64,000 nt of DNA, taken from assembly GCF_900115815.1 (NCBI RefSeq), contig NZ_FOXV01000017.1, forward strand, positions 1-64,000, read 5' to 3'. Below are positions 5,874 to 64,000 of the stretch, in pieces; the stretch's first letter is position 1; every line of letters starts with the position of its first letter. The notes below the pieces were generated by a model that was not told the origin of the DNA, searched no databases, and saw only the letters and a list, made by a program, of their open reading frames with translations. The position numbers and the translations under genes are program-made. This stretch comes from Roseivivax halotolerans. GTDB lineage: Bacteria > Pseudomonadota > Alphaproteobacteria > Rhodobacterales > Rhodobacteraceae.

Positions 5874-6599
5874 TTAAGATCCGGCAAACGGACATCGGGT
5901 CGCGGCCAGCCAGCCCGGCAGACCTCCGATGTCGGGCAGGACCACCTCCGCGAGGGGTGCAAGCTCCGAGTGCGTGGCGATCCCGGTCAGAACCGCGGCC
6001 GCGCGCATACCTGCCGCACGCGCCGCCGAAAGGTCATGGCTCGAGTCTCCGACCATCAGGACGCGGGCCGGGGCGACCCCGACACCATTGGCAAAAGCCA
6101 GAAGCGGCTCCGGATCGGGTTTTGCGCCGAACCCTGAATCCGCGCCGATCACGAGGCGAAATCGATCGGCAATTCCCACGGCCGCGAGATGCGCCCGCGC
6201 GACGGATTCGCTGTCGTTGGTCATAACGCCGAGGGCGAGGCCGCGCGCGTCGAGGTCTGCCAGGAGCGCGGGCAGATCGGTTGCTGGCACCGGGTGCGCG
6301 GCGGCGGCCTCCGCGTCGAGCAGGCTGCGAATGTCCCGCGCACTCAGGTCGGGAAGATGCGGCACAAGGCACTCCGTGACCTCTTCGGCGGTTCCGGCAA
6401 TGACCGGGCTGTCAGGAGAGAAACCCTGATCGCTATCAAAGCCGATCGCGTTCCCGAGCCTACGGGCCAGTGCCGTATCGCCGCCCGAAAGCCGGTCGAG
6501 CACCCCGGCCGCCCAGCCCTCCCAGGTCAGTCGAAAGTCGAACAGCGTGCCGTCCTTGTCAAAAAGGATCGCATCGATACCGGGAAGATCGGACGTCAC
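5874..6599 (-). CDS. HAD-family phosphatase (phosphoglycolate phosphatase-like)
   Basis: 241 residues with the four HAD motifs: I, FDKDGTLFD, with the nucleophile Asp; II, VMTND; III, Lys in GAKPDPEP; IV, GDSSHDL. A helical cap follows motif I. The start is a GTG at 6599 whose bases overlap the TGA of the preceding DUF3572 gene; the open frame extends further but reads through that gene. The family removes phosphate from small molecules such as 2-phosphoglycolate; the exact substrate is not determined. Confidence 0.85.
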   Translation of the reverse strand: MTSDLPGIDAILFDKDGTLFDFRLTWEGWAAGVLDRLSGGDTALARRLGNAIGFDSDQGFSPDSPVIAGTAEEVTECLVPHLPDLSARDIRSLLDAEAAAAHPVPATDLPALLADLDARGLALGVMTNDSESVARAHLAAVGIADRFRLVIGADSGFGAKPDPEPLLAFANGVGVAPARVLMVGDSSHDLSAARAAGMRAAAVLTGIATHSELAPLAEVVLPDIGGLPGWLAATRCPFAGS

Positions 6600-6880
6600 G
6601 TCCAATGCACCGCCTCGCCGCCCGGCAGCATTGCGCGTGCCGACATCGGCGCAGTGTAATCGAGGCCGGCATCGTCGCAGAAGGCCGTCAGCCACGCATC
6701 GTCCATCAATAGGAAGTCCAGCACCGATCCCTGGAAGTCGGGATCCGAGACGCTGTCGCGGAATTGCGCCTCCGAGGCGCCGGTCGCCCCCAGAAATACC
6801 GCAAGCAGCTCTTCGTTCCCTGCCAGCCACCCCACGGCCTGCAGGCCGATGATCTCTGCATTCTGGCGGTTCAGAGCCAT
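6596..6880 (-). CDS. DUF3572 family protein
   Basis: 94 residues, acidic and helical (MALNRQNAEIIGLQAVGWLA at the start), matching the small DUF3572 family of Rhodobacterales, which I recall lying beside a pleD-like gene as here. No signal peptide or membrane segment. It is divergent from the PleD-like gene and overlaps the start of the phosphatase gene (GTGA). Function unknown; a c-di-GMP link is only suggested by location. Confidence 0.75.
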   Translation of the reverse strand: MALNRQNAEIIGLQAVGWLAGNEELLAVFLGATGASEAQFRDSVSDPDFQGSVLDFLLMDDAWLTAFCDDAGLDYTAPMSARAMLPGGEAVHWT

Positions 6881-6985
6881 TCCCGTGCCTTCTGAAAATG
6901 TTTGTTAACCTTTGTGCATAAAGACTATCCGGGCCGGTCGGCGCAAGCGCGACCTGCATCCTGTCAATTATCGGGAGGCGCGGGA

Positions 6986-8419
6986 TTGCCTGGGCGCATT
7001 CTCATCCTCGACAGCGTGGCGATCAACCGGGTCGTGCTGCGCGTCAAGCTGGCCGCTGCCTGCTACGAGACCTTCCAGGCCGAGACCCTGGCAGAGGCGC
7101 TACGCGTCGCGAAGGCAGCCCGCCCCGATATCCTTCTCTTCTCGGCAGCCGCTCCGGGGGTGGACCCTGCCCGCCTGGTGTCTCGTTTTAAGACACTCAT
7201 GCCCGGTCATATCATAGCGATCATGATGATCGAGGCAGGCAGCGCGCCAGCCTCACCGGAAGCGGCGCTGGCGGCCGGAATCGACGAGGTGCTGCCACGG
7301 ACCTGCGAAGACGCCTTTCTCACCGCACGCCTGAGGGCTGTGTTCCGCGCACTCGAGGAGCGGCGCGAATTGCAAGCGCACGAGGATGAAACGCGGCTTC
7401 TCGGTTTCGCCGAGGCCACCGCCGCCGCGCCGGGACGGCGACGCGTGGCGCTTGTTGGCAGTCACGTGACGGGAGAGCCGGACCGGTTGTCGGACGCGAT
7501 CTCGGGACTGGCCGACGCGAATATCGAGCGGCGCAGCGCAAGGGAGGCTTTGAGCGCATCAGGGAGGGGAGCGGACGGATACGTCATCTCTGACGCCGGC
7601 CTCGACGGCGATGGATGCCGCAGCCTCATCGCGGATCTGCGATCCCAGACGCAGGGGCGCGAGGCGGCGATCATCGTCTTGACCGATGGTCCATCCGCGC
7701 AGGAGCGGGCCGCGGCCGCGCTCGATATGGGTGCCGACGACGTACTCCTTGCTGACGCCAGCCGCGCTGAGATTGCGATCCGCGTGCGGCGTCAACTCGA
7801 CCGGCGCGCAAGCCTTCGGCGGCAGCGACTCGGCCTTGAGGCCGGGATGCGCGCGGCTCTGACGGATCCGCTCACCGGGCTGTGGAACCGGCGCTATGCG
7901 CTGCCAAGGCTCGGCGCATGGCGCGCGTCGGTCGCCAAGAACTCCCGGCCGCTTGCCGTGATGATCGCGGATATCGATCGGTTCAAGGCGGTCAACGATC
8001 GGTTCGGGCATCCATTCGGCGACCGCGTGATCGCAGAAGTGGCGACATGCCTGTCAAGCGCCGCGGGGCCCGAAAGCCTTGTTGCGCGGCTCGGCGGAGA
8101 AGAATTTCTTATCGCAATGCAAGATACCGGCAGCGCCGAAGCGATCCAGGCGGCCGAGGGTCTGCGGCGTGCCGTCGATGCATGCGGTGTGCTTGCCGAT
8201 TTCGGAGCCGAGCCGGAGATTGTGCGAGTGAGCGTCTCTATCGGATGCGCGATTTTGACAGTCTCTGACGCAGCCGACCTCGACACCGGAACGTTGATCT
8301 CGCGCGCGGATGACGCGCTTTACGCGGCAAAGGATGCCGGGCGCGGGCGCGTCGTCTGCATGTCGATGGCGGATGCGCGCGACCGGGCGATCAGGCGGCT
8401 GCCGGCGGGCACGGGCTGA
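6986..8419 (+). CDS. pleD: PleD-like diguanylate cyclase with degenerate receivers
   Basis: About 477 residues: two receiver-like domains (about 1-115 and 155-270) and a C-terminal GGDEF domain with active motif LGGEEF and the DRFKAVNDRFGH stretch. The first receiver aligns to PleD (ILILDSVAINRVVL), but the acidic pair is LDS and the phosphate-accepting Asp position reads LLFSAAAPG, so it probably cannot be phosphorylated. The inhibitory RxxD site is replaced by GPES. I chose TTG 6986 because GGGAGGCG lies about 7 bp before it and PleD proteins begin here; an ATG at 6902 is possible but lacks a good site. It should make c-di-GMP, perhaps controlled by dimerisation rather than phosphorylation. 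Confidence 0.85.
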   Translation: MPGRILILDSVAINRVVLRVKLAAACYETFQAETLAEALRVAKAARPDILLFSAAAPGVDPARLVSRFKTLMPGHIIAIMMIEAGSAPASPEAALAAGIDEVLPRTCEDAFLTARLRAVFRALEERRELQAHEDETRLLGFAEATAAAPGRRRVALVGSHVTGEPDRLSDAISGLADANIERRSAREALSASGRGADGYVISDAGLDGDGCRSLIADLRSQTQGREAAIIVLTDGPSAQERAAAALDMGADDVLLADASRAEIAIRVRRQLDRRASLRRQRLGLEAGMRAALTDPLTGLWNRRYALPRLGAWRASVAKNSRPLAVMIADIDRFKAVNDRFGHPFGDRVIAEVATCLSSAAGPESLVARLGGEEFLIAMQDTGSAEAIQAAEGLRRAVDACGVLADFGAEPEIVRVSVSIGCAILTVSDAADLDTGTLISRADDALYAAKDAGRGRVVCMSMADARDRAIRRLPAGTG

Positions 8420-8440
8420 GGCTCGAGGCGCACCCGATAC

Positions 8441-8908
8441 TCATTTCCGTCGATCGCGCCGCGCCTCCATCGCTGCTTCCAGCCGGTCCGCATATTCGTT
8501 GCGTTCTTCCGCGCTCATCGTCGAGATCCTGTCGATCAAGGCCGATTGGCCGATCTCCCGCAATTGGTCGCCGCGGGCATTCTGCGCCTCGATGACATCC
8601 GCGAATGCCGCGGAGTCGAACGGCTCCGCTCGCAAGATCGACAGCGCGCCGGAGGCATCCCGGATCGACGGACCGCCGATCTCGCGCCGGGCGGTCCGCA
8701 GTTCGCTGAAGATCGCGCGTCGATCTGCCTGATCCAGCGCACGCGCATAGGCGAAACTATCGAGCCGGTCGCTCGGGCCTGGCGGGCCGCGCTTGGCGAA
8801 CGTTCCGACGACGGTGCCGACGATCAGGAGGTTGAGCCCCAGCGACAGCACGAGCAGGACTTTCATCCAGCGCGGCATCGAGCGTGTTTTTTTTTCCGTC
8901 CCTGCCAT
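8441..8908 (-). CDS. Periplasmic heavy-metal-sensor-like protein (CpxP/ZraP type)
   Basis: 155 residues. A positively charged start and one membrane segment (about 16-38) anchor a helical periplasmic part rich in Asp, Glu and Arg, ending MSAEERNEYADRLEAAMEARR, the style of the heavy-metal-sensor/CpxP group. Last gene of the sigma-factor operon, 3 bp after its neighbour. It probably helps sense envelope stress; no metal site is evident. Confidence 0.7.
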   Translation of the reverse strand: MAGTEKKTRSMPRWMKVLLVLSLGLNLLIVGTVVGTFAKRGPPGPSDRLDSFAYARALDQADRRAIFSELRTARREIGGPSIRDASGALSILRAEPFDSAAFADVIEAQNARGDQLREIGQSALIDRISTMSAEERNEYADRLEAAMEARRDRRK

Positions 8909-8911
8909 CGC

Positions 8912-9274
8912 TCAGCCCTCCTGATCCAGGTTGTCGAACCCGAGCGCCGGATCGAGATAAACGGCCATGTCGGCCTCACCCCACCACAGCGCATCAACCG
9001 ACGGCGCCAGCGTGGCGGGCGGGGACACGCCGATCCAGAGCCCCGCCACAACCGTCGCACCCAGTGCCGCCACGGCACGCCAGCCGCCGAGCGCCTCGAG
9101 GACGCGCTGGAGGAACGGCTCACGCGGACCGGGTCTCGGGCGCGTCAGAACCTCCCGCTCGGCGTCGTCCGTGAGCCGCGCGAGGAAATCGCGATCGATC
9201 TCGGGCGGCGTCGCGCGGGCGGCCTCGAGATGGTCCTCGAAGAGATCGTCATCGGGCGTCTCAGTCGTCTTCAT
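8912..9274 (-). CDS. Small membrane protein of the sigma operon, possible anti-sigma factor
   Basis: 120 residues: an acidic cytoplasmic N-terminus (MKTTETPDDDLFEDHLEAAR), one membrane segment (about 67-90), and a short periplasmic tail. Its start overlaps the end of the sigma-factor gene by 14 bp. That position and topology are those of an anti-sigma factor, but there is no zinc-binding HxxxCxxC motif, so this is inferred mainly from context. Confidence 0.6.
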   Translation of the reverse strand: MKTTETPDDDLFEDHLEAARATPPEIDRDFLARLTDDAEREVLTRPRPGPREPFLQRVLEALGGWRAVAALGATVVAGLWIGVSPPATLAPSVDALWWGEADMAVYLDPALGFDNLDQEG

Positions 9275-9824
9275 ACCCCAACTCCTTCCGCCTTCCTGCC
9301 AGGCGCGCGGTCAGCGCTTTACGGCCTCGCGCAATCAGACTTTCCGCAGCCCTCGGGCCTATGTCCATGATCCGCGCCACCTCTCCGGTGGGCATGTCGT
9401 CCAGATGCTTCAACACCACGGCCTGCCGCTGCCGCGCGGGAAGCGTTGCGAGTGCCGCCTCGAGCGCGGCAACCCGCTGTGCGTCGGTCATCCGCTCCCC
9501 GACAGGGGGTGCCTCGTCCGCGATCTCGGGCGCGTCCTCGAGATCTGCGCTGCGCCGTCGGCGGATGCGGTCGATGCAAAGATTGGCGGTCACGCGGTAA
9601 AGCCAGGTTCCGACCTGCGCCCGTCCCGGCTCCCAATCTGGCGCGATGCGCCAAAGCTTCATCAAGGCATCCTGTGTAGCATCCTCCGCCTCGGCCCGGT
9701 CGCCAAGAAGTCGGACCGCATGGGCGAAAATCCGGGGGGCGAGACGCAACGTCAGCGCGCGCGCTGCCGAAGCATCGCCAGAGGCGACCCGCGCCATCAG
9801 CTCGTCTTCGCTCTCGTCGTTCAT
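9261..9824 (-). CDS. ECF-type RNA polymerase sigma factor
   Basis: About 187 residues with region 2 (HAVRLLGDRAEAEDATQDAL then MKLWRIAP) and region 4 (ALATLPARQRQAVVLKHLDD, then a helix-turn-helix around GEVARIMDIGPRAAESLIARG). It would direct RNA polymerase to a small stress regulon. I take the Met at 9824 (MNDESEDELM) over the one at 9845. Two downstream membrane proteins overlap or nearly touch it, suggesting an ECF sigma/anti-sigma operon. Confidence 0.9.
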   Translation of the reverse strand: MNDESEDELMARVASGDASAARALTLRLAPRIFAHAVRLLGDRAEAEDATQDALMKLWRIAPDWEPGRAQVGTWLYRVTANLCIDRIRRRRSADLEDAPEIADEAPPVGERMTDAQRVAALEAALATLPARQRQAVVLKHLDDMPTGEVARIMDIGPRAAESLIARGRKALTARLAGRRKELGYEDD

Positions 9825-57273: not shown

Positions 57274-57858
57274 ATGAAACGCTTTATGACCGCAACCGCA
57301 CTGACATTCGCAATGGCCGGCACCGCGTTCGCCGCAACCGAGGCAGAGCGCGTGCAGATCCAGTCCTACCTGCCGAACGCGGACGTTTCCGGCTGGAGCG
57401 ACACCGAAGTTGCCACGGCGATGAACATCATCAACTCGAACGACCGTCGGTCGGACATCGTCGGTCAATTGAACGCGCTTTATGACGGCGAAGACTATGT
57501 CTCGACGCCTGCGACGATCACCGAAGCCGAGATGGCGCTTCTTGACCAGTACGTTGACGGTGTCGATTACGCCATGATGCCGCAGGCGCGCGTCGATGCA
57601 GCGATCTCCGCCGCTCAGAGCGGCATGTCCGAGAGCGACAAGTCTTCCGAGATCGTCGCACTCCTGTCGGACGACGCAACGCCGATGAGCGACATGAACT
57701 CCGCATCGGCCGGCGAGATCGCGTTGATCCGCCAATACGCGCCGGACGCTGATGTCTCCACGCTGAGCGATCAGCAGGTGCAGTCGGTGCTCGCGATAAT
57801 CTACTCCGGCGAAAATCCGGGCGATGTGCGCGGTGATGTCGAAGCATACCTGAACTAA
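57274..57858 (+). CDS. Secreted protein with internal repeats, unknown function
   Basis: 194 residues: signal peptide (near AFA-AT, residue 20) and three related units of about 55 residues (QSYLPNADVSGWSDTEVATAMNII; DQYVDGVDYAMMPQARVDAAI; RQYAPDADVSTLSDQQVQSVLAII). Acidic, helical. GAAAGGAT precedes the start. Own terminator follows. Sits between tRNA-Trp and secE, normally neighbours. Confidence 0.8.
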   Translation: MKRFMTATALTFAMAGTAFAATEAERVQIQSYLPNADVSGWSDTEVATAMNIINSNDRRSDIVGQLNALYDGEDYVSTPATITEAEMALLDQYVDGVDYAMMPQARVDAAISAAQSGMSESDKSSEIVALLSDDATPMSDMNSASAGEIALIRQYAPDADVSTLSDQQVQSVLAIIYSGENPGDVRGDVEAYLN

Positions 57859-57945: not shown

Positions 57946-58021
57946 TGGCAGGGGCAGCAGGGCTCGAACCCGCGACCTACGGTTTTGGAGACCGTCGCTC
58001 TACCAACTGAGCTATACCCCT
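57946..58021 (-). tRNA. tRNA-Trp (anticodon CCA)
   Basis: 76-nt cloverleaf: acceptor AGGGGTA/TGCCCCT, anticodon loop CTCCAAA giving CCA, T arm GCGGGTTCGAGCCCTGC and encoded CCA. In alphaproteobacteria it usually precedes secE. The integrase lies on its 5' side. Confidence 0.97.
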
Positions 58022-58032
58022 TCTGCAAGCGT

Positions 58033-58061
58033 TCATTAGGTTTTTCGTTCGGAAGGGTCAA
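58033..58061 (-). promoter_or_regulatory. Promoter of tRNA-Trp
   Basis: TTGACC, 17 bp, TAATGA on the minus strand, with the -10 about 11 bp before the tRNA. Near-consensus housekeeping promoter. Its presence between tRNA and integrase shows the tRNA promoter is intact despite the neighbouring element. Confidence 0.75.
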
Positions 58062-58108: not shown

Positions 58109-59137
58109 TCATGTCGATGCCCAAAGCCTCCGTTTTTCAGCGGCCGTGGTCGCGCGCATTATCTGACGCGCCAGACCGGCGTATTTGATGACCATCTCTT
58201 TCGTATCGTGCCCGCTGTAGGACATGATTTCGTCGTCGTCGCAGCCAGCCCATGCCAGCTCCATCACTCCCCGATAGCGCAGCGCGTGTTGATCGTGGAC
58301 CATGAGACCGAGCCGTCGCCTCTCGCGGCGCATAATTTGCCCCATCCCGCTTTTGGTGAGGCGGTGCCCGTGCTCGCCGATAAGGATTGGCCGTGACGGA
58401 TGCGGCGTGACTCCCAGGCGCTCAATTTCGGAAGCCAGCGCGGCTTTCAGGTTATCGTCGCAAGGGAGAACCAGCGACTTGCTGGTTTTGCTCTGGCTGA
58501 GGCTGAGGTTTCGACCGTCATAGTCGCCCCAGTTGAATTTCACCCAGTCGGCTGGGCGCTGAACGCTGCCTATGCCGATCTCGAAAATCAGTCGTGCTCT
58601 ATGGTTCGCCTCAGCTCGGAACGTCGCGACGGCTTCGTCGGTCCACGGTACGTGTGGACGCTGCCGCTCTTTCGGGATCGGCATCTTTCGAACGCCCTTC
58701 GCTGGGTTCGCCGAGATCCAGCCGATATCGATAGCGTGTTCGCAAAGAACTGACATGATCGCGGGAATATCATTCGCGAACTTCGGCTTGTGGCGATTGG
58801 CATTTTGCGCGGCAATCACATCCTTCCGATGCAATCTCGTCATGTCCTTTCGGCCATTCTTCTCGAGGATGTAGACGAGAACCCGCTCGTAGGTGCTGCG
58901 CGTCGAGGGCTTGAGGTTCAACCACCGATCCGATGCGCGGTAAGAGGCAATCAGAGCCGACCATGAGGTTTTTGCCGCATGCGTCTTCCCGGTCAGAATT
59001 TCCCAGTATTCGCGGTCGAAATCAGGTGTCCCCGGAGCAGCCTTGATGCGACCGAGATACTTCCCGCCCTTGCGAACGTAGATGAATCCTGGCTTCGGCT
59101 CGTGGAGATACCGCTTTCCTTCAGCACCCTTCACCAT
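58109..59137 (-). CDS. int: Phage-type tyrosine integrase
   Basis: 342 residues: SAM-like core-binding domain (SWSALIASYRASDRWLNLK) and catalytic domain with Arg in GSVQRPADW, Lys in SQSKTSKSL, HALRYRG, SGHDTKE and Tyr in MVIKYAG. All catalytic residues present, so probably active. First gene at the left end of the phage-derived element; start overlaps the small HTH gene by 7 bp. Confidence 0.92.
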   Translation of the reverse strand: MVKGAEGKRYLHEPKPGFIYVRKGGKYLGRIKAAPGTPDFDREYWEILTGKTHAAKTSWSALIASYRASDRWLNLKPSTRSTYERVLVYILEKNGRKDMTRLHRKDVIAAQNANRHKPKFANDIPAIMSVLCEHAIDIGWISANPAKGVRKMPIPKERQRPHVPWTDEAVATFRAEANHRARLIFEIGIGSVQRPADWVKFNWGDYDGRNLSLSQSKTSKSLVLPCDDNLKAALASEIERLGVTPHPSRPILIGEHGHRLTKSGMGQIMRRERRRLGLMVHDQHALRYRGVMELAWAGCDDDEIMSYSGHDTKEMVIKYAGLARQIMRATTAAEKRRLWAST

Positions 59138-59331
59138 TCGAAGCCTCCATCTGCCATCTCACCCCGGAAAATCTTCCGCAGCTCTTCCACGTCCCAGCGG
59201 CGAATTCCTGCGATCTCGCGCCCCGCCGGAAGGTGCCCGCCCTCAACCAAACCTCGGAATTCGGTCGGCTTCATATCGAGAAGCCGTGCCGCTGTATCTT
59301 CCTTGGCCATGATTGGGGCGGGACGTGTCAT
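59131..59331 (-). CDS. Small HTH protein, probable excisionase
   Basis: 66 residues (or 59 from Met 59310). EDTAARLLDMKPTEFRGLVE and a basic region GREIAGIRRWDVEELRKI resemble MerR-type excisionase HTH proteins. Overlaps int, as xis genes do. No clear ribosome site for either start. Confidence 0.7.
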   Translation of the reverse strand: MTRPAPIMAKEDTAARLLDMKPTEFRGLVEGGHLPAGREIAGIRRWDVEELRKIFRGEMADGGFEW

Positions 59332-59343
59332 CGCGCTTGCCCG

Positions 59344-59670
59344 TTACACCGAGCCGTTCAGGCGAACGCGGACCGCACTGGCAGCGTCTGCCGCTGGCTC
59401 GGAAACCGCGCCGATCAGGTTATTGCCCGAGGCCGTCCCCGTCACGTTGCCGTTCGCCGTGGACCAATAGGCTTTCTGGCCTTTGGTCAGCGCTCCGGAT
59501 GCTTTCGGCAATTCGAACACGCCGGTTACCGCGGCTTCGAAATCGTCGCCGGTCGCGGCGTCGGTCGAGGCAACGCCGAAGAGCGCGCCCTGCATAACAC
59601 CTTGCCCGGCTTTGATCTCCGCTGCTGCGGTGAAGGTGAGCACATTGCCCGCTTGGATGTAGTTCTTCAT
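59344..59670 (-). CDS. DUF2190 phage capsid cement protein
   Basis: 108 residues, beta-rich (MKNYIQAGNVLTFTAAAEIK, AGQGVMQGALFGVA) matching DUF2190 cement/decoration proteins that cover the capsid. Start shares a base with the gpW-like stop (TGATG). Confidence 0.85.
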   Translation of the reverse strand: MKNYIQAGNVLTFTAAAEIKAGQGVMQGALFGVASTDAATGDDFEAAVTGVFELPKASGALTKGQKAYWSTANGNVTGTASGNNLIGAVSEPAADAASAVRVRLNGSV

Positions 59671-59885
59671 CAGCTCAATCCTTTCGAAGAAGTGACGCGG
59701 ACCTTGCGGATTTGTCGGCCCTCAAGTGCCGCGATGCGGCCTTTCAGGTCAGCCATGGCCGCGACGAGTTGCGCGTCGCTTTTGTAGCGAACCTCGTCAT
59801 CACCAAATTTCGCGGTATCCACACCGTCCTCGCGAAGCTCTTCGAGCTTGGCGAGCCGGGCTTTCAGCACTGCAAGGTCCGCCAT
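59670..59885 (-). CDS. gpW-like phage head-tail connector
   Basis: 71 residues, helical, VRYKSDAQLVAAMADLKGRI, similar to the short head-completion (gpW) proteins next to lambda-type portals. 3 bp after the capsid fusion gene. Confidence 0.7.
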   Translation of the reverse strand: MADLAVLKARLAKLEELREDGVDTAKFGDDEVRYKSDAQLVAAMADLKGRIAALEGRQIRKVRVTSSKGLS

Positions 59886-59888
59886 CAG

Positions 59889-61715
59889 TTACGCCCCTGC
59901 GTTCTGATACCAGCCGCGCCAGTCGAGGAACGCCGCGCCGTAGTCCAAGCGAACCTTGAACTCCATGCCGTCGATCTCGAAGCCCGCGCGCGTATCGATT
60001 TGCGGCCCCTCCTCGCCCTGGAGATAGCTGTATTCGAGCCCTTCGACGGTGGCGGGGTCAGCGGTCACGTACCAGCGGGTTGCGCTTGTGAGGCGCGACT
60101 CGACCAGTAGGGAGAGCTTAGAAGCGAACGGGTTCACCTCGTCGCTGTTTGTCGGCTGAATTGCGGCGAGCAGCTTTTCAGCGGTGGTTTCGAGCTCCGG
60201 CGGGACAACCAGGTATTTCGGGCTCACGTTGATCCGCTTTCCCGACAGCCCGGTCTGCTTCCGCATGGCGAGGCGCGCGGCTGAAAGTGTCTCTTCGGAG
60301 AGCGCGGCTCCGGATGCGGCGAGGTTGCCGTGATCCGCATGGAAAAGCGCGTTGCCATCGTCCATGTCGGGGCCGTTGCCGGAGCCGCTTTCGAGAAGAT
60401 CGACCAGGAACTGCGCCTCGAACTCACTCGCGGCCATTCCGAGCTTTGCGGCAGGATCCGAGAGCGCACCGATATCGTCGTTGATGATTGCCTGCCGGGT
60501 GAAGCCGATGATCCGCCCGAAAGTGTCGATGGCGTAGCTCTCTTTCGCCTCGGCCATCGAGCCGGACTTGAACTCGCCGTGTTCATTCACCTTCTCAAGC
60601 GTCGGCGCTTCGCCAAGCTGGATCTTCGTCTTGCGGCGGAAGTCGCGGGCCGTAGCCTTGCGGGCAACCGCCTTGAGCGTTGCAGGCGCTGCCTGGTAAG
60701 AAGCCATTAGCGTCCGGTTCACCGTGTCTGCGAAGATCGCCGGATAATCCGACGTCGACTGAAGCGCCCGTGTAATCAGGGCGGAGGAGGACATACCGGT
60801 GACCACTTCGCCGGATCGGGTCAGGCAGTCTCGTGCGAGGTCGAGCGTGGTCATTCCGTAGAACTCGCGCGCCCGTTCGCTGAGTTGGTGGCCGGGGTTC
60901 ACCCTGGCGAACATCGCCTCTCCCATGTGGCGAACCCGCTCGCGCGGATCTTCGACCTGGCGAACATTGGTCACGCGGGTCTGGACCGGTGAAGATTGAT
61001 TACGCTGAAGCTCATCGAGTGCGGCGGAGCGCGCCTCCTCGACACTGGCTTCGCGGTCGATCAGGCCATCCGTGAAGGATTGCGGCAGCTCGAAGGCTTG
61101 CGCGAGGCTTCGAATTTCCCCGTTGATCTCGGCGCGGGTCTGCACCTGTTGCTGGGGCGGCGTGTTGGGTGCCGATTGCGGCGGCGTGGTCGGGGGTGCG
61201 CTCCCCGGGTTGGTCTCGGGCATGTCACTGCTCCTGATATGAGACGCGGCGTCGGCAGGCACCGCGCAAAGGGAAGCTTCGACCAGGGTCCACTTCGTGG
61301 CGACGCGCACACGTTGGCCGGATGACCGGTCAACCTCGTCACGGTGGTCCTGGACCGAGTAGCCGATGGAAACGCCCCGGATGATACCCTCCTCGATGTC
61401 GTCGAGGATCGCGTCATGCCGAGACGAAATCTGAATTCTGCCGATCAATTTGCCGCCCTCAATGCGGGCGGAGACCAGTCGGCCGAGAATGCTCCCGATG
61501 CCGTCGCGTCGGTGCGTATCAAGGATCGGAGCACCTTCGGATCTTCCGAGATCGATTGCGTCCGAGCTGACGCTCAGTCGCTCGATGAAAGGGCCGTCGA
61601 GGTCGAAGCGCTGCACGTCTGCACCGGTGGAAAGCACCGCTTCGACGGTGCGCTTGCCTCGGTCCAGTGTCTTGGGGCGCACGTCCATCGCGCGGGTTTG
61701 AAGATCAAGCGGCAT
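59889..61715 (-). CDS. Prohead protease-major capsid protein fusion
   Basis: 608 residues. N-terminal S78-type protease (about 1-165) with His in LDTHRRDGIGS and Ser in RGVSIGYS; a Pro/Gln linker (about 170-200); scaffold-like helices; then a capsid domain (about 300-608: AIFADTVNRTLMASYQAAPA, GEFKSGSMAEAKESY). The protease should cut itself from the capsid part during head maturation. Start at 61715 (MPLDLQTRAM) overlaps the portal gene by 11 bp. Confidence 0.88.
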   Translation of the reverse strand: MPLDLQTRAMDVRPKTLDRGKRTVEAVLSTGADVQRFDLDGPFIERLSVSSDAIDLGRSEGAPILDTHRRDGIGSILGRLVSARIEGGKLIGRIQISSRHDAILDDIEEGIIRGVSIGYSVQDHRDEVDRSSGQRVRVATKWTLVEASLCAVPADAASHIRSSDMPETNPGSAPPTTPPQSAPNTPPQQQVQTRAEINGEIRSLAQAFELPQSFTDGLIDREASVEEARSAALDELQRNQSSPVQTRVTNVRQVEDPRERVRHMGEAMFARVNPGHQLSERAREFYGMTTLDLARDCLTRSGEVVTGMSSSALITRALQSTSDYPAIFADTVNRTLMASYQAAPATLKAVARKATARDFRRKTKIQLGEAPTLEKVNEHGEFKSGSMAEAKESYAIDTFGRIIGFTRQAIINDDIGALSDPAAKLGMAASEFEAQFLVDLLESGSGNGPDMDDGNALFHADHGNLAASGAALSEETLSAARLAMRKQTGLSGKRINVSPKYLVVPPELETTAEKLLAAIQPTNSDEVNPFASKLSLLVESRLTSATRWYVTADPATVEGLEYSYLQGEEGPQIDTRAGFEIDGMEFKVRLDYGAAFLDWRGWYQNAGA

Positions 61716-63111
61716 TGCCGGTCTCCTCTGCTTCGATGCCCAGGCGTTGCGCCCTTCGGCGGTCGGCTGAGATCTCGGCATCGATCTCCTCGGCGTCATA
61801 CCCACGCTCGGCGATTACCTCGGAGCGGGAGCGCAGGTTCGCATCAATCTCCATAATCGCGGCGCGGGCGTCCTTCAGCGGATCGACCCACGGCCAGCTC
61901 GGCGGGAGCCATTTCGCGGACTGCAAACCGTTCGCCGGGTCCATGAAGGCTTGCGCCGTCACGGTGCCGCGCAAGACCTGCCAGCGCATGAACCGCGCCC
62001 AGACCGGGCGACAAAGCTGGTGAACGATGACGTGATGCTGGACGGCTTCGCAGAAGCGGCGGAATTCCAGGAACGCGGCGCGGGCGCTGCTGTAGTTCAC
62101 CTGACTGAAATCGCCGGTCACCTGTTCGTAGGTGCAGCCGATGCCTGCCGCCATCGCGCGGAGCTGCGTCGTCGCGAGCCCCTGCGCGTCTCCACTATCA
62201 GGAAGGTTCGGGAACTCGACCCGCTTCCCGTTGGGCATCACGAGGAGCGTCCCCGGTTCCATTCCGGTGTCGAGCGTGTCGCCGTTTGCCGTTCCGGGAT
62301 AGGTGCTACCCTCGCCCGCCGGATCATAGACAAATCCGGTGTGAAGCGCGGAGACCTTGGCTCGCACGAGCAGCGCATCGAGAAGCTGGTCCAGCTCGTG
62401 ACCGGCCAGCAGGATCGGTGCGAACCAACTCAGACCGCGAACCTGTCCGGGGACCAGCGGGCGAAACATGTGGATCACGTCACCGGCGGGGAGCCGGGCC
62501 AAGGAGACAGACCGCAGTGACCCCGCCGGTGCCGCTTCACCCGGTGCGCTCGGGCGAAGCCAGTAGGCGACCGGGGCCGCCGAGTTCTTATCGAATTCCA
62601 CTCCTTGAACCACAAACCGGCTCTCCGAGAGCGTGACAGTCTTGGACCGGTCGAGCTGGTCAGGATGCAATTGCTTCAGAGAGGGTGCGCCGTCTGGGTG
62701 CGCCTCGAAGACAGCCAACGCCTCACCAAAAATGACCATGTCGGTGACCAAGCGGTGCTGAAGGGCAAAGAGATCGCCGAGGCCGGAGCTGTCGGCGCGA
62801 TCCGTCCAGATGTCGAAAGCGCGATGCAGACGCTGCCGGAGCCCTTCCGATTCCGCCCGAGCTTTCGGCTTGATGCCCGTCCCGACCATATTGTCGGCGA
62901 GCACTTGCTTCATGCGGGCACCGTGCGGGTTGTTCAGAGCGAAATCCGCCGCTCGGGCTCCGACCAGGTGCGCTCCAGCGCGGATGCTGCTGGCTGGGCT
63001 CTGGCTCGCCGTTCGCCCCGCCCAGCGGTAGCCACCAGATGCGGCTTCAAGTGCGCGGGTCTGATCCGGCTTGCCCTGGCGGCGGAAGAGGTTGGCGAAA
63101 GGAAAGGCCAT
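61705..63111 (-). CDS. Phage portal protein (lambda gpB family)
   Basis: 468 residues with NNPHGARMKQVLADNMVGTG, VPGQVRGLSWFAPIL, TYEQVTGDFSQVNYSSARAA, hallmark lambda-family portal segments. Forms the dodecameric DNA gate. Full length. Confidence 0.93.
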   Translation of the reverse strand: MAFPFANLFRRQGKPDQTRALEAASGGYRWAGRTASQSPASSIRAGAHLVGARAADFALNNPHGARMKQVLADNMVGTGIKPKARAESEGLRQRLHRAFDIWTDRADSSGLGDLFALQHRLVTDMVIFGEALAVFEAHPDGAPSLKQLHPDQLDRSKTVTLSESRFVVQGVEFDKNSAAPVAYWLRPSAPGEAAPAGSLRSVSLARLPAGDVIHMFRPLVPGQVRGLSWFAPILLAGHELDQLLDALLVRAKVSALHTGFVYDPAGEGSTYPGTANGDTLDTGMEPGTLLVMPNGKRVEFPNLPDSGDAQGLATTQLRAMAAGIGCTYEQVTGDFSQVNYSSARAAFLEFRRFCEAVQHHVIVHQLCRPVWARFMRWQVLRGTVTAQAFMDPANGLQSAKWLPPSWPWVDPLKDARAAIMEIDANLRSRSEVIAERGYDAEEIDAEISADRRRAQRLGIEAEETGNAA

Positions 63112-63125
63112 CCGTTCTGTCCTGC

Positions 63126-63821
63126 TCAGTCCATCCGACCGGCGGAACGAAGTTCATGTTGAAAGCGAAGATTGGCCTCGAAGCTGAGAAATACGCCGGT
63201 AAGGTCGAGAATTTGGGGATAGCTTGCTGCCTCGCCGAGAAGGTCGCGGACCCGCTCACTCGATGCAAACTGGGTAGCCATCTCAAAGGAAGCGGCTCGC
63301 GCATCCTGCAGCGTATTCTTGTGCTTCGCATCGTCTTGCATGAGCGTGACCAATGCGCGAGCCCCATCCCCACGAAGGTGATACACAGCCCAAGTGCGCT
63401 GATCGGGATCACGCGAAATGATGGATTCCGAGAAAACCATCTGCGGTGAGGTGCAAGCGATGCGGAGATCGAGAGGCTGGTGGCCCTCGCTCGGCTCAAG
63501 CTCTGCCAAGCGCTCGTAGCCGGATGCGAGGTCACCTTTGATCTCGGTGCCACTTGGAACAGCGCTGCTCACCAATTCGTCGAGGATGCCCCAGGTTGTG
63601 GCGCGCGCGATTTCGCGAGAGTGCGTAGCCGCTACTGCAAGGTGGAGTGCGCGCTCTGCAATAAGCGAATATTCCACGTGGCCGCGTTTCGTTTCCTTGA
63701 AACGCGGTAGCAAGTTCATCTTGCTCGCGTTGTAGTTCCGCTGAAATACGCCGAAATTCCCGTGTTGAAGCGCGGCTGCAGCTTCTCGCGTCGAATATTC
63801 GCCGTCCATGATCAAGTCCAT
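63126..63821 (-). CDS. Putative DNA-binding protein upstream of the portal gene
   Basis: About 231 residues from ATG 63821 (MDLIMDGEYSTREAA), which follows GGAG by 8 bp; a longer frame exists but reads through the palindrome. The first 70 residues look like an HTH (STREAAAALQHGNFGVFQRN); the rest is unrecognised. 14 bp before the portal gene, so co-transcribed. The palindrome just upstream suggests self-regulation. Confidence 0.6.
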   Translation of the reverse strand: MDLIMDGEYSTREAAAALQHGNFGVFQRNYNASKMNLLPRFKETKRGHVEYSLIAERALHLAVAATHSREIARATTWGILDELVSSAVPSGTEIKGDLASGYERLAELEPSEGHQPLDLRIACTSPQMVFSESIISRDPDQRTWAVYHLRGDGARALVTLMQDDAKHKNTLQDARAASFEMATQFASSERVRDLLGEAASYPQILDLTGVFLSFEANLRFQHELRSAGRMD

Positions 63822-63855
63822 TGCCGAGGCTCCATCTGAGTTTCCAGCAACTGAC

Positions 63856-63890
63856 CACACTGAACGTATCAAGTCAATACGTTCAGTGTG
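63856..63890. promoter_or_regulatory. Perfect 13 bp palindromic operator candidate
   Basis: CACACTGAACGTA / TACGTTCAGTGTG with a 9 bp spacer whose minus strand contains TTGACT, a possible -35 box. 35 bp upstream of the putative regulator start, overlapping its promoter. Confidence 0.75.
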
Positions 63891-63918
63891 GCTCACCTTA
63901 TTGCGCAAAACTCGATAA

Positions 63919-64000
63919 CTACCCGACCAGCTCTCGCGCCTCGACCCAAAGCCCTCCGGACTCCCAGTCGCTAAAGACAGCGCCATCAACGGTGTCGATG
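63919..64000 (-). CDS. C-terminal end of an unidentified gene, cut by the window edge
   Basis: The minus strand is open from the window edge to TAG at 63919-63921, reading IDTVDGAVFSDWESGGLW then VEARELVG. Codon use and GC fit a real gene of the same element. No family recognised from 27 residues. Confidence 0.5.
   Translation of the reverse strand, partial: IDTVDGAVFSDWESGGLWVEARELVG

What the first reader, a model, noticed from the sequence alone, without database searches (positions are those of the whole stretch)
58109..64000. Compact capsid-carrying integrative element: possible phage satellite
Integrase and xis directly adjoin cement, connector, protease-capsid fusion and portal genes, with overlaps of a few bases throughout, then a putative regulator behind an operator. 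No tail, lysis or replication genes lie between integrase and head genes. This order fits a capsid-forming satellite that borrows tails from a helper phage, or a deleted prophage.
Basis: partly seen in the sequence, partly recalled or inferred. Interest (0 to 1): 0.75.

Follow-up and report, generated by a model that had tools for sequence, protein, structure and literature searches.

The report
Capsid-building phage satellite at tRNA-Trp
An 11.4-kb DNA parasite in this bacterium encodes its own virus head and DNA packager but no tail that could be found, so it probably borrows tails from other viruses to spread; it belongs to a large family of such elements in alphaproteobacteria, and it seems to carry a spare promoter for the tRNA gene that it splits.

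Summary
Past the window's right edge the element ends at an exact 38-bp repeat of the tRNA-Trp 5' half (57984-58021 and contig 69382-69419). The 11.4-kb element holds integrase, xis-like gene, cement, gpW-like connector, protease-capsid fusion, portal, regulators, TerL, TerS and small unknown genes; no tail, lysis or replication family was matched. Four of eight congeners show the neighbourhood without it. It is no lone relic: 51 elements (this one included) with tRNA-anchored repeats (9.85-13.2 kb; 3 size outliers dropped) share the plan, related pairs show purifying selection and swapped integrases, and capsids and portals part from tailed-phage ones by one well-supported branch. Best reading: a capsid-forming satellite that needs a helper's tail; it works like a cfPICI but looks like a separate alphaproteobacterial lineage. 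Helper and transfer are untested. Extra: its integrase clade can enter the tRNA 5' half, cutting off the native promoter; all 9 distinct elements seen to do so carry a -35/-10-like pair 9-12 nt before the tRNA, and none of 13 3'-half relatives does.

The parts
57946..58021 (-). tRNA-Trp(CCA), the integration target; the only close match found in the genome assembly
   Evidence: ARAGORN; own-genome DNA matches
57984..58021 (.). att copy at the integrase end: 38-bp exact repeat = 5' half of tRNA-Trp (the far copy is at contig C41 69382-69419, outside the window)
58033..58061 (-). element-borne promoter-like pair TTGACC-17-TAATGA, 11 nt before the tRNA 5' end (the displaced native pair TTGAAA-17-TATCCG is at contig C41 69431-69459)
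   Evidence: not reported by the stricter consensus scan
58109..59137 (-). tyrosine integrase, 342 aa
   Evidence: PF00589, phrog_1
59131..59331 (-). xis-like small HTH protein, 66 aa
   Evidence: HTH_17 0.0036, phrog_66 0.056, both weak; relatives before int in L104, L105, L115, L121
59344..59670 (-). capsid cement protein, 108 aa
   Evidence: PF09956, phrog_122
59670..59885 (-). gpW-like head-tail connector, 71 aa
   Evidence: phrog_2545; helix-hairpin-helix model; lambda gpW best PDB match of the family profile, E 0.057, weak
59889..61715 (-). prohead protease-major capsid fusion (likely start ATG 61715; longest ORF starts 61805)
   Evidence: phrog_4523, PF25209, PF04586; alignment
61705..63111 (-). 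portal, lambda family, 468 aa
   Evidence: PF05136
63126..63821 (-). regulator-slot gene directly upstream of the portal (likely start ATG 63821; the open frame runs further up)
   Evidence: no family of its own; position shared by relatives; 25% identity to L097
63855..63891 (.). operator-like inverted repeat, two 15-bp arms, 7-bp spacer
63919..64000 (-). 3' part of a 256-aa protein with Tat-signal-like N-terminus (recalled motif), unknown function; the gene runs on to contig C41 64689

Best explanation
It is an integrated phage satellite that makes and fills its own capsid but has no tail. Proposed cycle: a helper phage (or prophage induction) lifts repression by the Arc/HTH regulators (inferred); Int with the xis-like protein excises the element at the tRNA-Trp repeats (anatomy shown, activity inferred); TerS/TerL package it through the portal into a protease-capsid/cement shell (gene families shown); the gpW-like connector caps the portal and a helper's neck and tail join it (inferred); the particle injects the element, which enters the tRNA-Trp 5' half and, having cut off the native promoter, drives the tRNA from its own promoter (sequence shown, activity inferred). 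It belongs to an alphaproteobacterial lineage of such satellites.
For: Exact 38-bp tRNA repeats 11,398 bp apart; head and packaging genes and no tail family; tRNA-Trp and the same CoA-transferase 1.1-2.3 kb apart without element in G002, G003, G004, G007, 4 of 8 congeners; 54 of 168 loci tested with tRNA-anchored repeats, 51 kept at 9.85-13.2 kb; shared gene order; 238 ORFs from the region after the capsid in 26 tailed phages hit 26 of 26 other phages but 4 of 51 elements; one branch parts 51 elements from 26 tailed phages in the capsid tree (SH-aLRT 100) and 47 from 26 in the portal tree (98); dN/dS 0.06-0.33 for capsid, TerL and portal in 7 related pairs (TerL in 6); near-identical heads with unrelated integrases at other tRNAs (L091/L092, L155/L158); gpW likeness of the connector.
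Against: No helper identified; no evidence of excision, packaging or transfer. No recognised replication gene in the window element, whereas at least 36 of 51 elements have a replication-type one. Four of the 51 (Rhizobiales loci L114, L128, L136, L149) have no portal match, and L114 and L136 match tape-measure proteins, so the safe core is 47. Two members (L146, L153) carry one neck/tail-type gene. Loci were drawn by likeness to satellite capsids, which favours finding satellites. dN/dS was not computed for the window element itself.
Confidence: 0.85

Rival explanations
1. A defective prophage that lost tail, lysis and replication genes by deletion and is decaying.
For: No tail, lysis or replication gene matched; no evidence of activity.
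Against: Same reduced plan at 9.85-13.2 kb in 51 elements of many genera; one lineage in two trees; purifying selection in related pairs, though not computed for the window element; integrase exchange; intact att repeats and element-free neighbourhoods.
Confidence: 0.07
2. A true member of the described capsid-forming PICIs (cfPICI).
For: Same division of labour: own capsid, protease, portal, connector and both terminases, tail missing (definition in PMC10690885 passages).
Against: No HNH gene matched in the window element; protease fused to the capsid; GpA terminase; 11.4 kb against an average of 14 kb; alphaproteobacteria are not among the main hosts named in PMC10803314 (passages). No cfPICI sequence was compared here.
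Confidence: 0.1
3. A head module that works with tails encoded elsewhere in the same chromosome (the GTA or the Mu-like prophage), so that no outside helper is needed.
For: The genome has a GTA cluster and a prophage with contractile tail genes.
Against: Nothing links those tails to this head. In one E. coli strain, 17 resident prophages did not mobilise its cfPICI at detectable frequency (PMC11389934 passages), so co-residence says little.
Confidence: 0.1
4. A gene transfer agent-like particle.
For: Alphaproteobacterial host and head genes.
Against: Has int, xis-like gene and att repeats; the genome's GTA is elsewhere, on C31.
Confidence: 0.02

Closest known systems
Capsid-forming PICI (cfPICI; Alqurainy et al. 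2023, recalled; not held)
   Same: Integrated satellite with own capsid, protease, portal, connectors and terminases; depends on a helper for tails (definition read in PMC10690885 and PMC11389934 passages).
   Different: Protease fused to the capsid (capsid part nearest to Mu gpT-type chains in the PDB), GpA terminase, no HNH matched, 11.4 kb, alphaproteobacterial hosts; [quoted passage not shown]
MulchRoom/MiniFlayer satellites of Streptomyces (PMC10690885, passages)
   Same: Own capsid and packaging genes, no obvious replicase; MulchRoom particles have a tail like the helper's.
   Different: Actinobacterial hosts, terminal repeats, virulent helpers; homology was not tested here.
Rhodobacter phages of the RcKemmy group and other phages with related protease-capsid fusions
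   Same: Homologous protease-capsid (38.4% at most in the 40 records listed of 213), portal, cement.
   Different: About 41 kb, with tail and lysis genes; RcKemmy's gpW-like gene lies between TerL and portal, in the satellites after the capsid gene.
pTN3-like archaeal integrases, which use the 5' half of tRNA genes (PMC8371274 passages)
   Same: Insert at the tRNA 5' half and supply the promoter.
   Different: Archaeal; there the integrase promoter drives the tRNA. Here a separate promoter-like pair lies after int. The review calls the situation seldom met in bacteria.

Membership tests
phage satellite with own capsid (working like a cfPICI) | integrase, flanking att repeats, compact size | tested here: met
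   11.4 kb
phage satellite with own capsid (working like a cfPICI) | own capsid, portal, TerS, TerL, connector | tested here: met
   connector
phage satellite with own capsid (working like a cfPICI) | no tail genes | tested here: met
   Pfam/PHROG scans of the element's ORFs; tblastn with 238 ORFs of the tail region of 26 phages found nothing in the window element
phage satellite with own capsid (working like a cfPICI) | mobilised by a helper phage that gives tails | not testable with these tools
   needs bench work
cfPICI (named family) | HNH endonuclease with the packaging genes | tested here: not met
   none among the ORFs scanned in the window element; a relative, L302, has an HNH gene in its TerL-portal gap
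cfPICI (named family) | head maturation protease as part of the capsid set | tested here: met
   present, but fused to the capsid protein
cfPICI (named family) | capsid in one of the three published cfPICI clades | not tested
   no cfPICI sequences were compared
PICI | AlpA-type regulator and primase/replication gene (recalled definition) | tested here: inconclusive
   xis-like HTH_17 protein below cut-off; no primase matched in the window element; replication-type gene in at least 36 of 51 elements
Gene transfer agent | no integrase or att; tail genes in the cluster (recalled definition) | tested here: not met

The most novel reading that the evidence does not exclude
A single old lineage of alphaproteobacterial satellites keeps its own heads, tunes itself to helpers through a fast-changing regulator slot in front of the portal, and in its tRNA 5'-half branch takes over transcription of a host tRNA gene (here the only tRNA-Trp found): each switch to the 5' half went with a matching replacement promoter, so the host's tRNA supply is run from satellite DNA and could be tied to the satellite's state.
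Probability: 0.35. Interest if true: 0.8.

Novelty: new variant of a known kind. Interest (0 to 1): 0.62.

Why it matters
Capsid-forming satellites are named mainly from gammaproteobacteria and Firmicutes (PMC10803314 passages). A separate lineage in alphaproteobacteria (40 of 394 genomes of the window's family, own genome included, have a capsid of at least 40% identity over at least 550 of 638 residues by my count of the rows listed) would mean that making heads and borrowing tails is more widespread than listed, and that many 'incomplete prophages' of 10-13 kb in marine and soil alphaproteobacteria may be working satellites. The promoter that goes with the 5'-half insertions gives a natural test of how an element avoids harming a host when it splits a tRNA gene the 'wrong' way round.

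Tried and rejected
Size outliers L104, L139 and L100 (7.1, 7.9, 16.7 kb) were dropped from the 54 before all later counts. RcKemmy tail proteins alone were a poor tail test, since they also miss most of the tailed phages; I then used 238 ORFs of the tail region from 26 phages, chosen by place and length, so that some are not tail genes. Of 10 long ORFs scanned from the tailed set, 8 matched tape-measure families; L068 and L071 matched only unnamed ones; for the other phages 'tailed' rests on contigs of at least 28 kb with long ORFs after the capsid, for RcKemmy on its annotation. Cargo as defence genes: of 10 proteins tried against PADLOC only L095 (Fic-like) and the L302 methyltransferase matched. 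The regulator-slot protein did not fold with confidence (mean pLDDT 47). The connector model gave no significant Foldseek hit (best E 0.36, a prefoldin complex; portal-adaptor chains of phages R4C and lambda at ranks 2 and 5). The consensus promoter scan reported no site before the tRNA; the promoter claim rests on TTG-N17-TA at a fixed distance and on its contrast with 3'-half relatives. The helper search in the own genome gave candidates only.

Papers: passages only were read of PMC11389934, PMC10187409, PMC10690885, PMC10803314, PMC8682789 and PMC8371274; Alqurainy 2023 and the SatelliteFinder paper were looked up and are not held. That I found no paper describing this family rests on the searches (listings; one search listed 12 of 1,181) in an open-licence library only.
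Full report
WHAT IS THERE. The window is the first 64 kb of a 71,836-bp contig (C41) of a 3.77-Mb genome. The genus is probably Roseivivax: genome G004 of the same genus has a contig of the same length as, and an identical capsid to, R. lentus NZ_FTOQ01000016.1 (inference). [quoted passage not shown] Nearly all genes lie on the minus strand, towards the tRNA. From the integrase end: integrase, small HTH protein, cement protein, connector, protease-capsid fusion, lambda-type portal, a regulator-slot gene, a 256-aa protein, an Arc-like gene, two plus-strand ORFs (Arc-like repressor, 88 aa), GpA-type large terminase, small terminase, then three small unknown genes. No tail, lysis or replication family was matched. 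Right flank: a small protein and a CoA-transferase.

PARTS BEYOND THE WINDOW (contig C41 coordinates, window base 1 = contig base 1; ORFs): 256-aa protein 63919-64689 minus; Arc-like protein 64713-64859 minus (likely start inside a 101-aa ORF; PF03869 5e-7); Arc-like repressor 64900-65289 plus (PF03869 2e-14); unknown 88 aa 65332-65598 plus; large terminase 65635-67713 minus (PF05876, PF20454); small terminase 67457-67972 minus (phrog_57 9e-30); unknown ORFs 67995-68339, 68540-68785 (81 aa) and 68782-69267 (161 aa), all minus; far att copy 69382-69419; displaced native promoter-like pair 69431-69459 minus.

EMPTY SITE. In 4 of 8 congeners (G002, G003, G004, G007) tRNA-Trp and the same CoA-transferase gene lie 1.1-2.3 kb apart without an element. 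The exact 38-bp core is found in G002 and G003, not in G004 and G007. In the other four the best CoA-transferase match is weak and on another contig than tRNA-Trp.

A FAMILY, NOT A RELIC. The capsid finds relatives of 42-58% identity on contigs of 4-16 kb of IMG/VR, beside relatives of about 37% on contigs of up to 48 kb and more, and in named genomes 80 loci were kept of 522 confirmed, mostly alphaproteobacteria. The 40 GenBank phage records listed (of 213) reach 38.4% at most. Of 168 loci tested, 54 have a tRNA-anchored direct repeat of 14 bp or more; many of the rest are contigs cut short. Median distance 11.7 kb. After three size outliers were dropped, 51 elements of 9.85-13.2 kb remain, at 16 tRNA types. 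Counts over these 51, by sequence cluster: capsid 51, connector 45, integrase 45, TerL 44, TerS 43, cement 35, and portal 47 by HMM. Cluster names rest on position, on likeness to the window's genes and on the representatives scanned; not every integrase cluster was scanned. Left-end genes differ: PrimPol/VapE or DUF5906 type in 9, PriCT-2 plus AAA_25 in 9, AAA_25 alone in 7, HTH_36 type in 11, together 36 of 51 (one representative scanned per cluster). At least one more (L140) has a D5_N/DUF5906 protein between TerL and portal. The window element has none; it has genes found in 8, 7 and 6 of the 51 (window included), of which the first two stand beside a replication-type gene in L108, L117 and L153 and so are not simply its substitute.

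TAILS. 238 ORFs from the region after the capsid of 26 tailed phages hit 26 of 26 other phages and 4 of 51 elements; the window element is not hit. Two of the four (L146, L153) carry one homologue of RcKemmy gene 12 ('minor tail protein' by its annotation) left of TerS; its place in RcKemmy, between head-tail attachment and tail tube genes, suggests a neck or tail-completion part, a possible clue to the helper. The other two, L114 and L136, match tape-measure proteins (L136 over 44 residues only) and, with L128 and L149, have no portal match; I treat these four Rhizobiales loci as doubtful, leaving a core of 47.

ONE LINEAGE. In a capsid tree the 51 elements and 26 tailed phages fall on two sides of one branch (SH-aLRT 100; 0 of 500 shuffles as low; a first tree with 46 and 24 rows gave the same). 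A portal tree of 47 and 26 rows does so too (98). These are quick trees without bootstrap, unrooted, and the sampling started from satellite capsids. Capsid, TerL and portal of seven related pairs (TerL in six) show dN/dS 0.06-0.33; connector and cement reach 0.44 and 0.39. L091 and L092 have 94% identical capsids and 98% TerL but 29% integrases and sit in tRNA-Arg and tRNA-Phe; L155/L158 and L105/L109 repeat the pattern, while L094/L095 and L133/L143 keep related integrases. That is what moving elements that exchange integration modules look like, rather than decaying prophages. In the window's family 123 of 394 genomes have some capsid homologue (E up to 0.001); 40 of 394 have one of at least 40% identity over at least 550 of 638 residues (my count of the rows listed); these were not checked for att repeats as a set.

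THE NECK. The 71-aa protein matches PHROG 'head-tail adaptor Ad1'. Its model is helix-hairpin-helix (mean pLDDT 77), and lambda gpW is the best PDB match of the family profile (E 0.057, over most of its length); the fold search itself was not significant. In lambda (recalled) gpW sits on the portal and gpFII and the tail follow; the satellites seem to stop at gpW, so a helper would have to supply what comes next (inference). In RcKemmy the gpW-like gene lies between TerL and portal and in AcaML1 the match adjoins the portal gene; in the satellites it follows the capsid gene.

REGULATION. Directly upstream of the portal 46 of 47 portal-bearing elements have an ORF of about 150-360 aa (chosen by position and length, so some may be wrong). 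MerR_1 is found in 15 of 43 scanned, not in the window's own. In several pairs it diverges far faster than its neighbours (L094/L095: 43% beside 98-99% for capsid, TerL and portal), though not in L155/L158 (92%). In the window an inverted repeat with 15-bp arms lies in front of it; arms of 10 bp or more occur near the start of the slot ORF in 7 of 46 elements against 36 of 920 random 400-bp windows. I infer a regulator slot tuned to helper or self.

A SPARE PROMOTER. The window element, L105 and L115 (3 of 51) have the 5' and not the 3' end of the tRNA in the repeat; such an insertion cuts the tRNA from its promoter. On both the native and the element side all three have TTGNNN-N17-TANNNN ending 10-12 nt before the tRNA; random 60-mers of the same loci have such a pair at 8-22 nt from their end in 23 of 10,800, and the tRNA upstreams of the other loci in 16 of 49. 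With more members of the integrase clade, of 31 loci examined 8 could not be classed; of the 5'-half type 10 of 10 loci (9 distinct, L115 and L315 being identical) carry the pair 9-12 nt before the tRNA; of the 3'-half type 0 of 13 do (5 next to a full tRNA, 8 next to a 3'-half fragment). The integrase tree needs three changes between types (at least two forced by starred branches; the long branch of L331 is unsure). A review states that with very few exceptions the bacterial tRNA keeps its original promoter and that the archaeal 5'-half case is seldom met in bacteria (PMC8371274, passages). The strict consensus scan did not report the site, so activity must be measured.

WHAT IT IS CALLED. 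It works like a cfPICI, but I do not file it as one: the description that I read names an HNH nuclease among the parts, and the average size is 14 kb and the hosts are others (PMC10690885 and PMC10803314, passages); here the protease is fused to the capsid and no HNH was matched; no cfPICI sequence was compared. I call it a separate alphaproteobacterial lineage of capsid-forming satellites. Five searches of the held library did not bring up a description of it (listings).

OPEN. Helper, induction, packaged size (one copy or several per head), replication, and the function of the 256-aa, 161-aa, 81-aa and 88-aa products.

Noticed in passing
contig C31 68000-101000 (loci L299, L295): A prophage that looks Mu-like, with contractile tail genes (sheath, tape measure and baseplate matched PHROGs); the transposase, terminase and portal names rest on my reading. 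A possible helper.
   Followed up: partly
contig C31 116000-135000 (L298): The genome's gene transfer agent cluster (GTA_TIM and Phage_portal matches).
   Followed up: partly
contig C30 1-19000 (L297): A 935-aa tape measure protein near a tyrosine integrase, a serine-type integrase and a RepA-like ATPase: another prophage or remnants.
   Followed up: partly
contig C39 end (L296:11115-14771): Portal-like protein and integrase at the contig end: an incomplete further phage element.
   Followed up: partly
L146:4352-5056 and L153:3143-3757: Two satellites carry a homologue of RcKemmy gene 12 (neck/tail region) just left of TerS: a hint at the helper type.
   Followed up: partly
L302 (Paracoccus sp. 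SMMA_5 plasmid) 5962-9363: A related element has a cytosine methyltransferase, an HNH protein and a second methyltransferase between TerL and portal: a cargo slot.
   Followed up: partly
window 57274-57858 and L003:12883-13131: Two small exported-looking proteins that look alike to the eye lie on both sides of the element, next to the tRNA-Trp site.
   Followed up: no
L121:2375 and 13303: A relative with a 58% identical integrase has a 20-bp repeat 10.9 kb apart with no tRNA found beside int.
   Followed up: no
L004 (IMGVR_UViG_2675903164_000004): IMG/VR lists a 13.7-kb contig with proteins identical to this element's, ending at the integrase.
   Followed up: no
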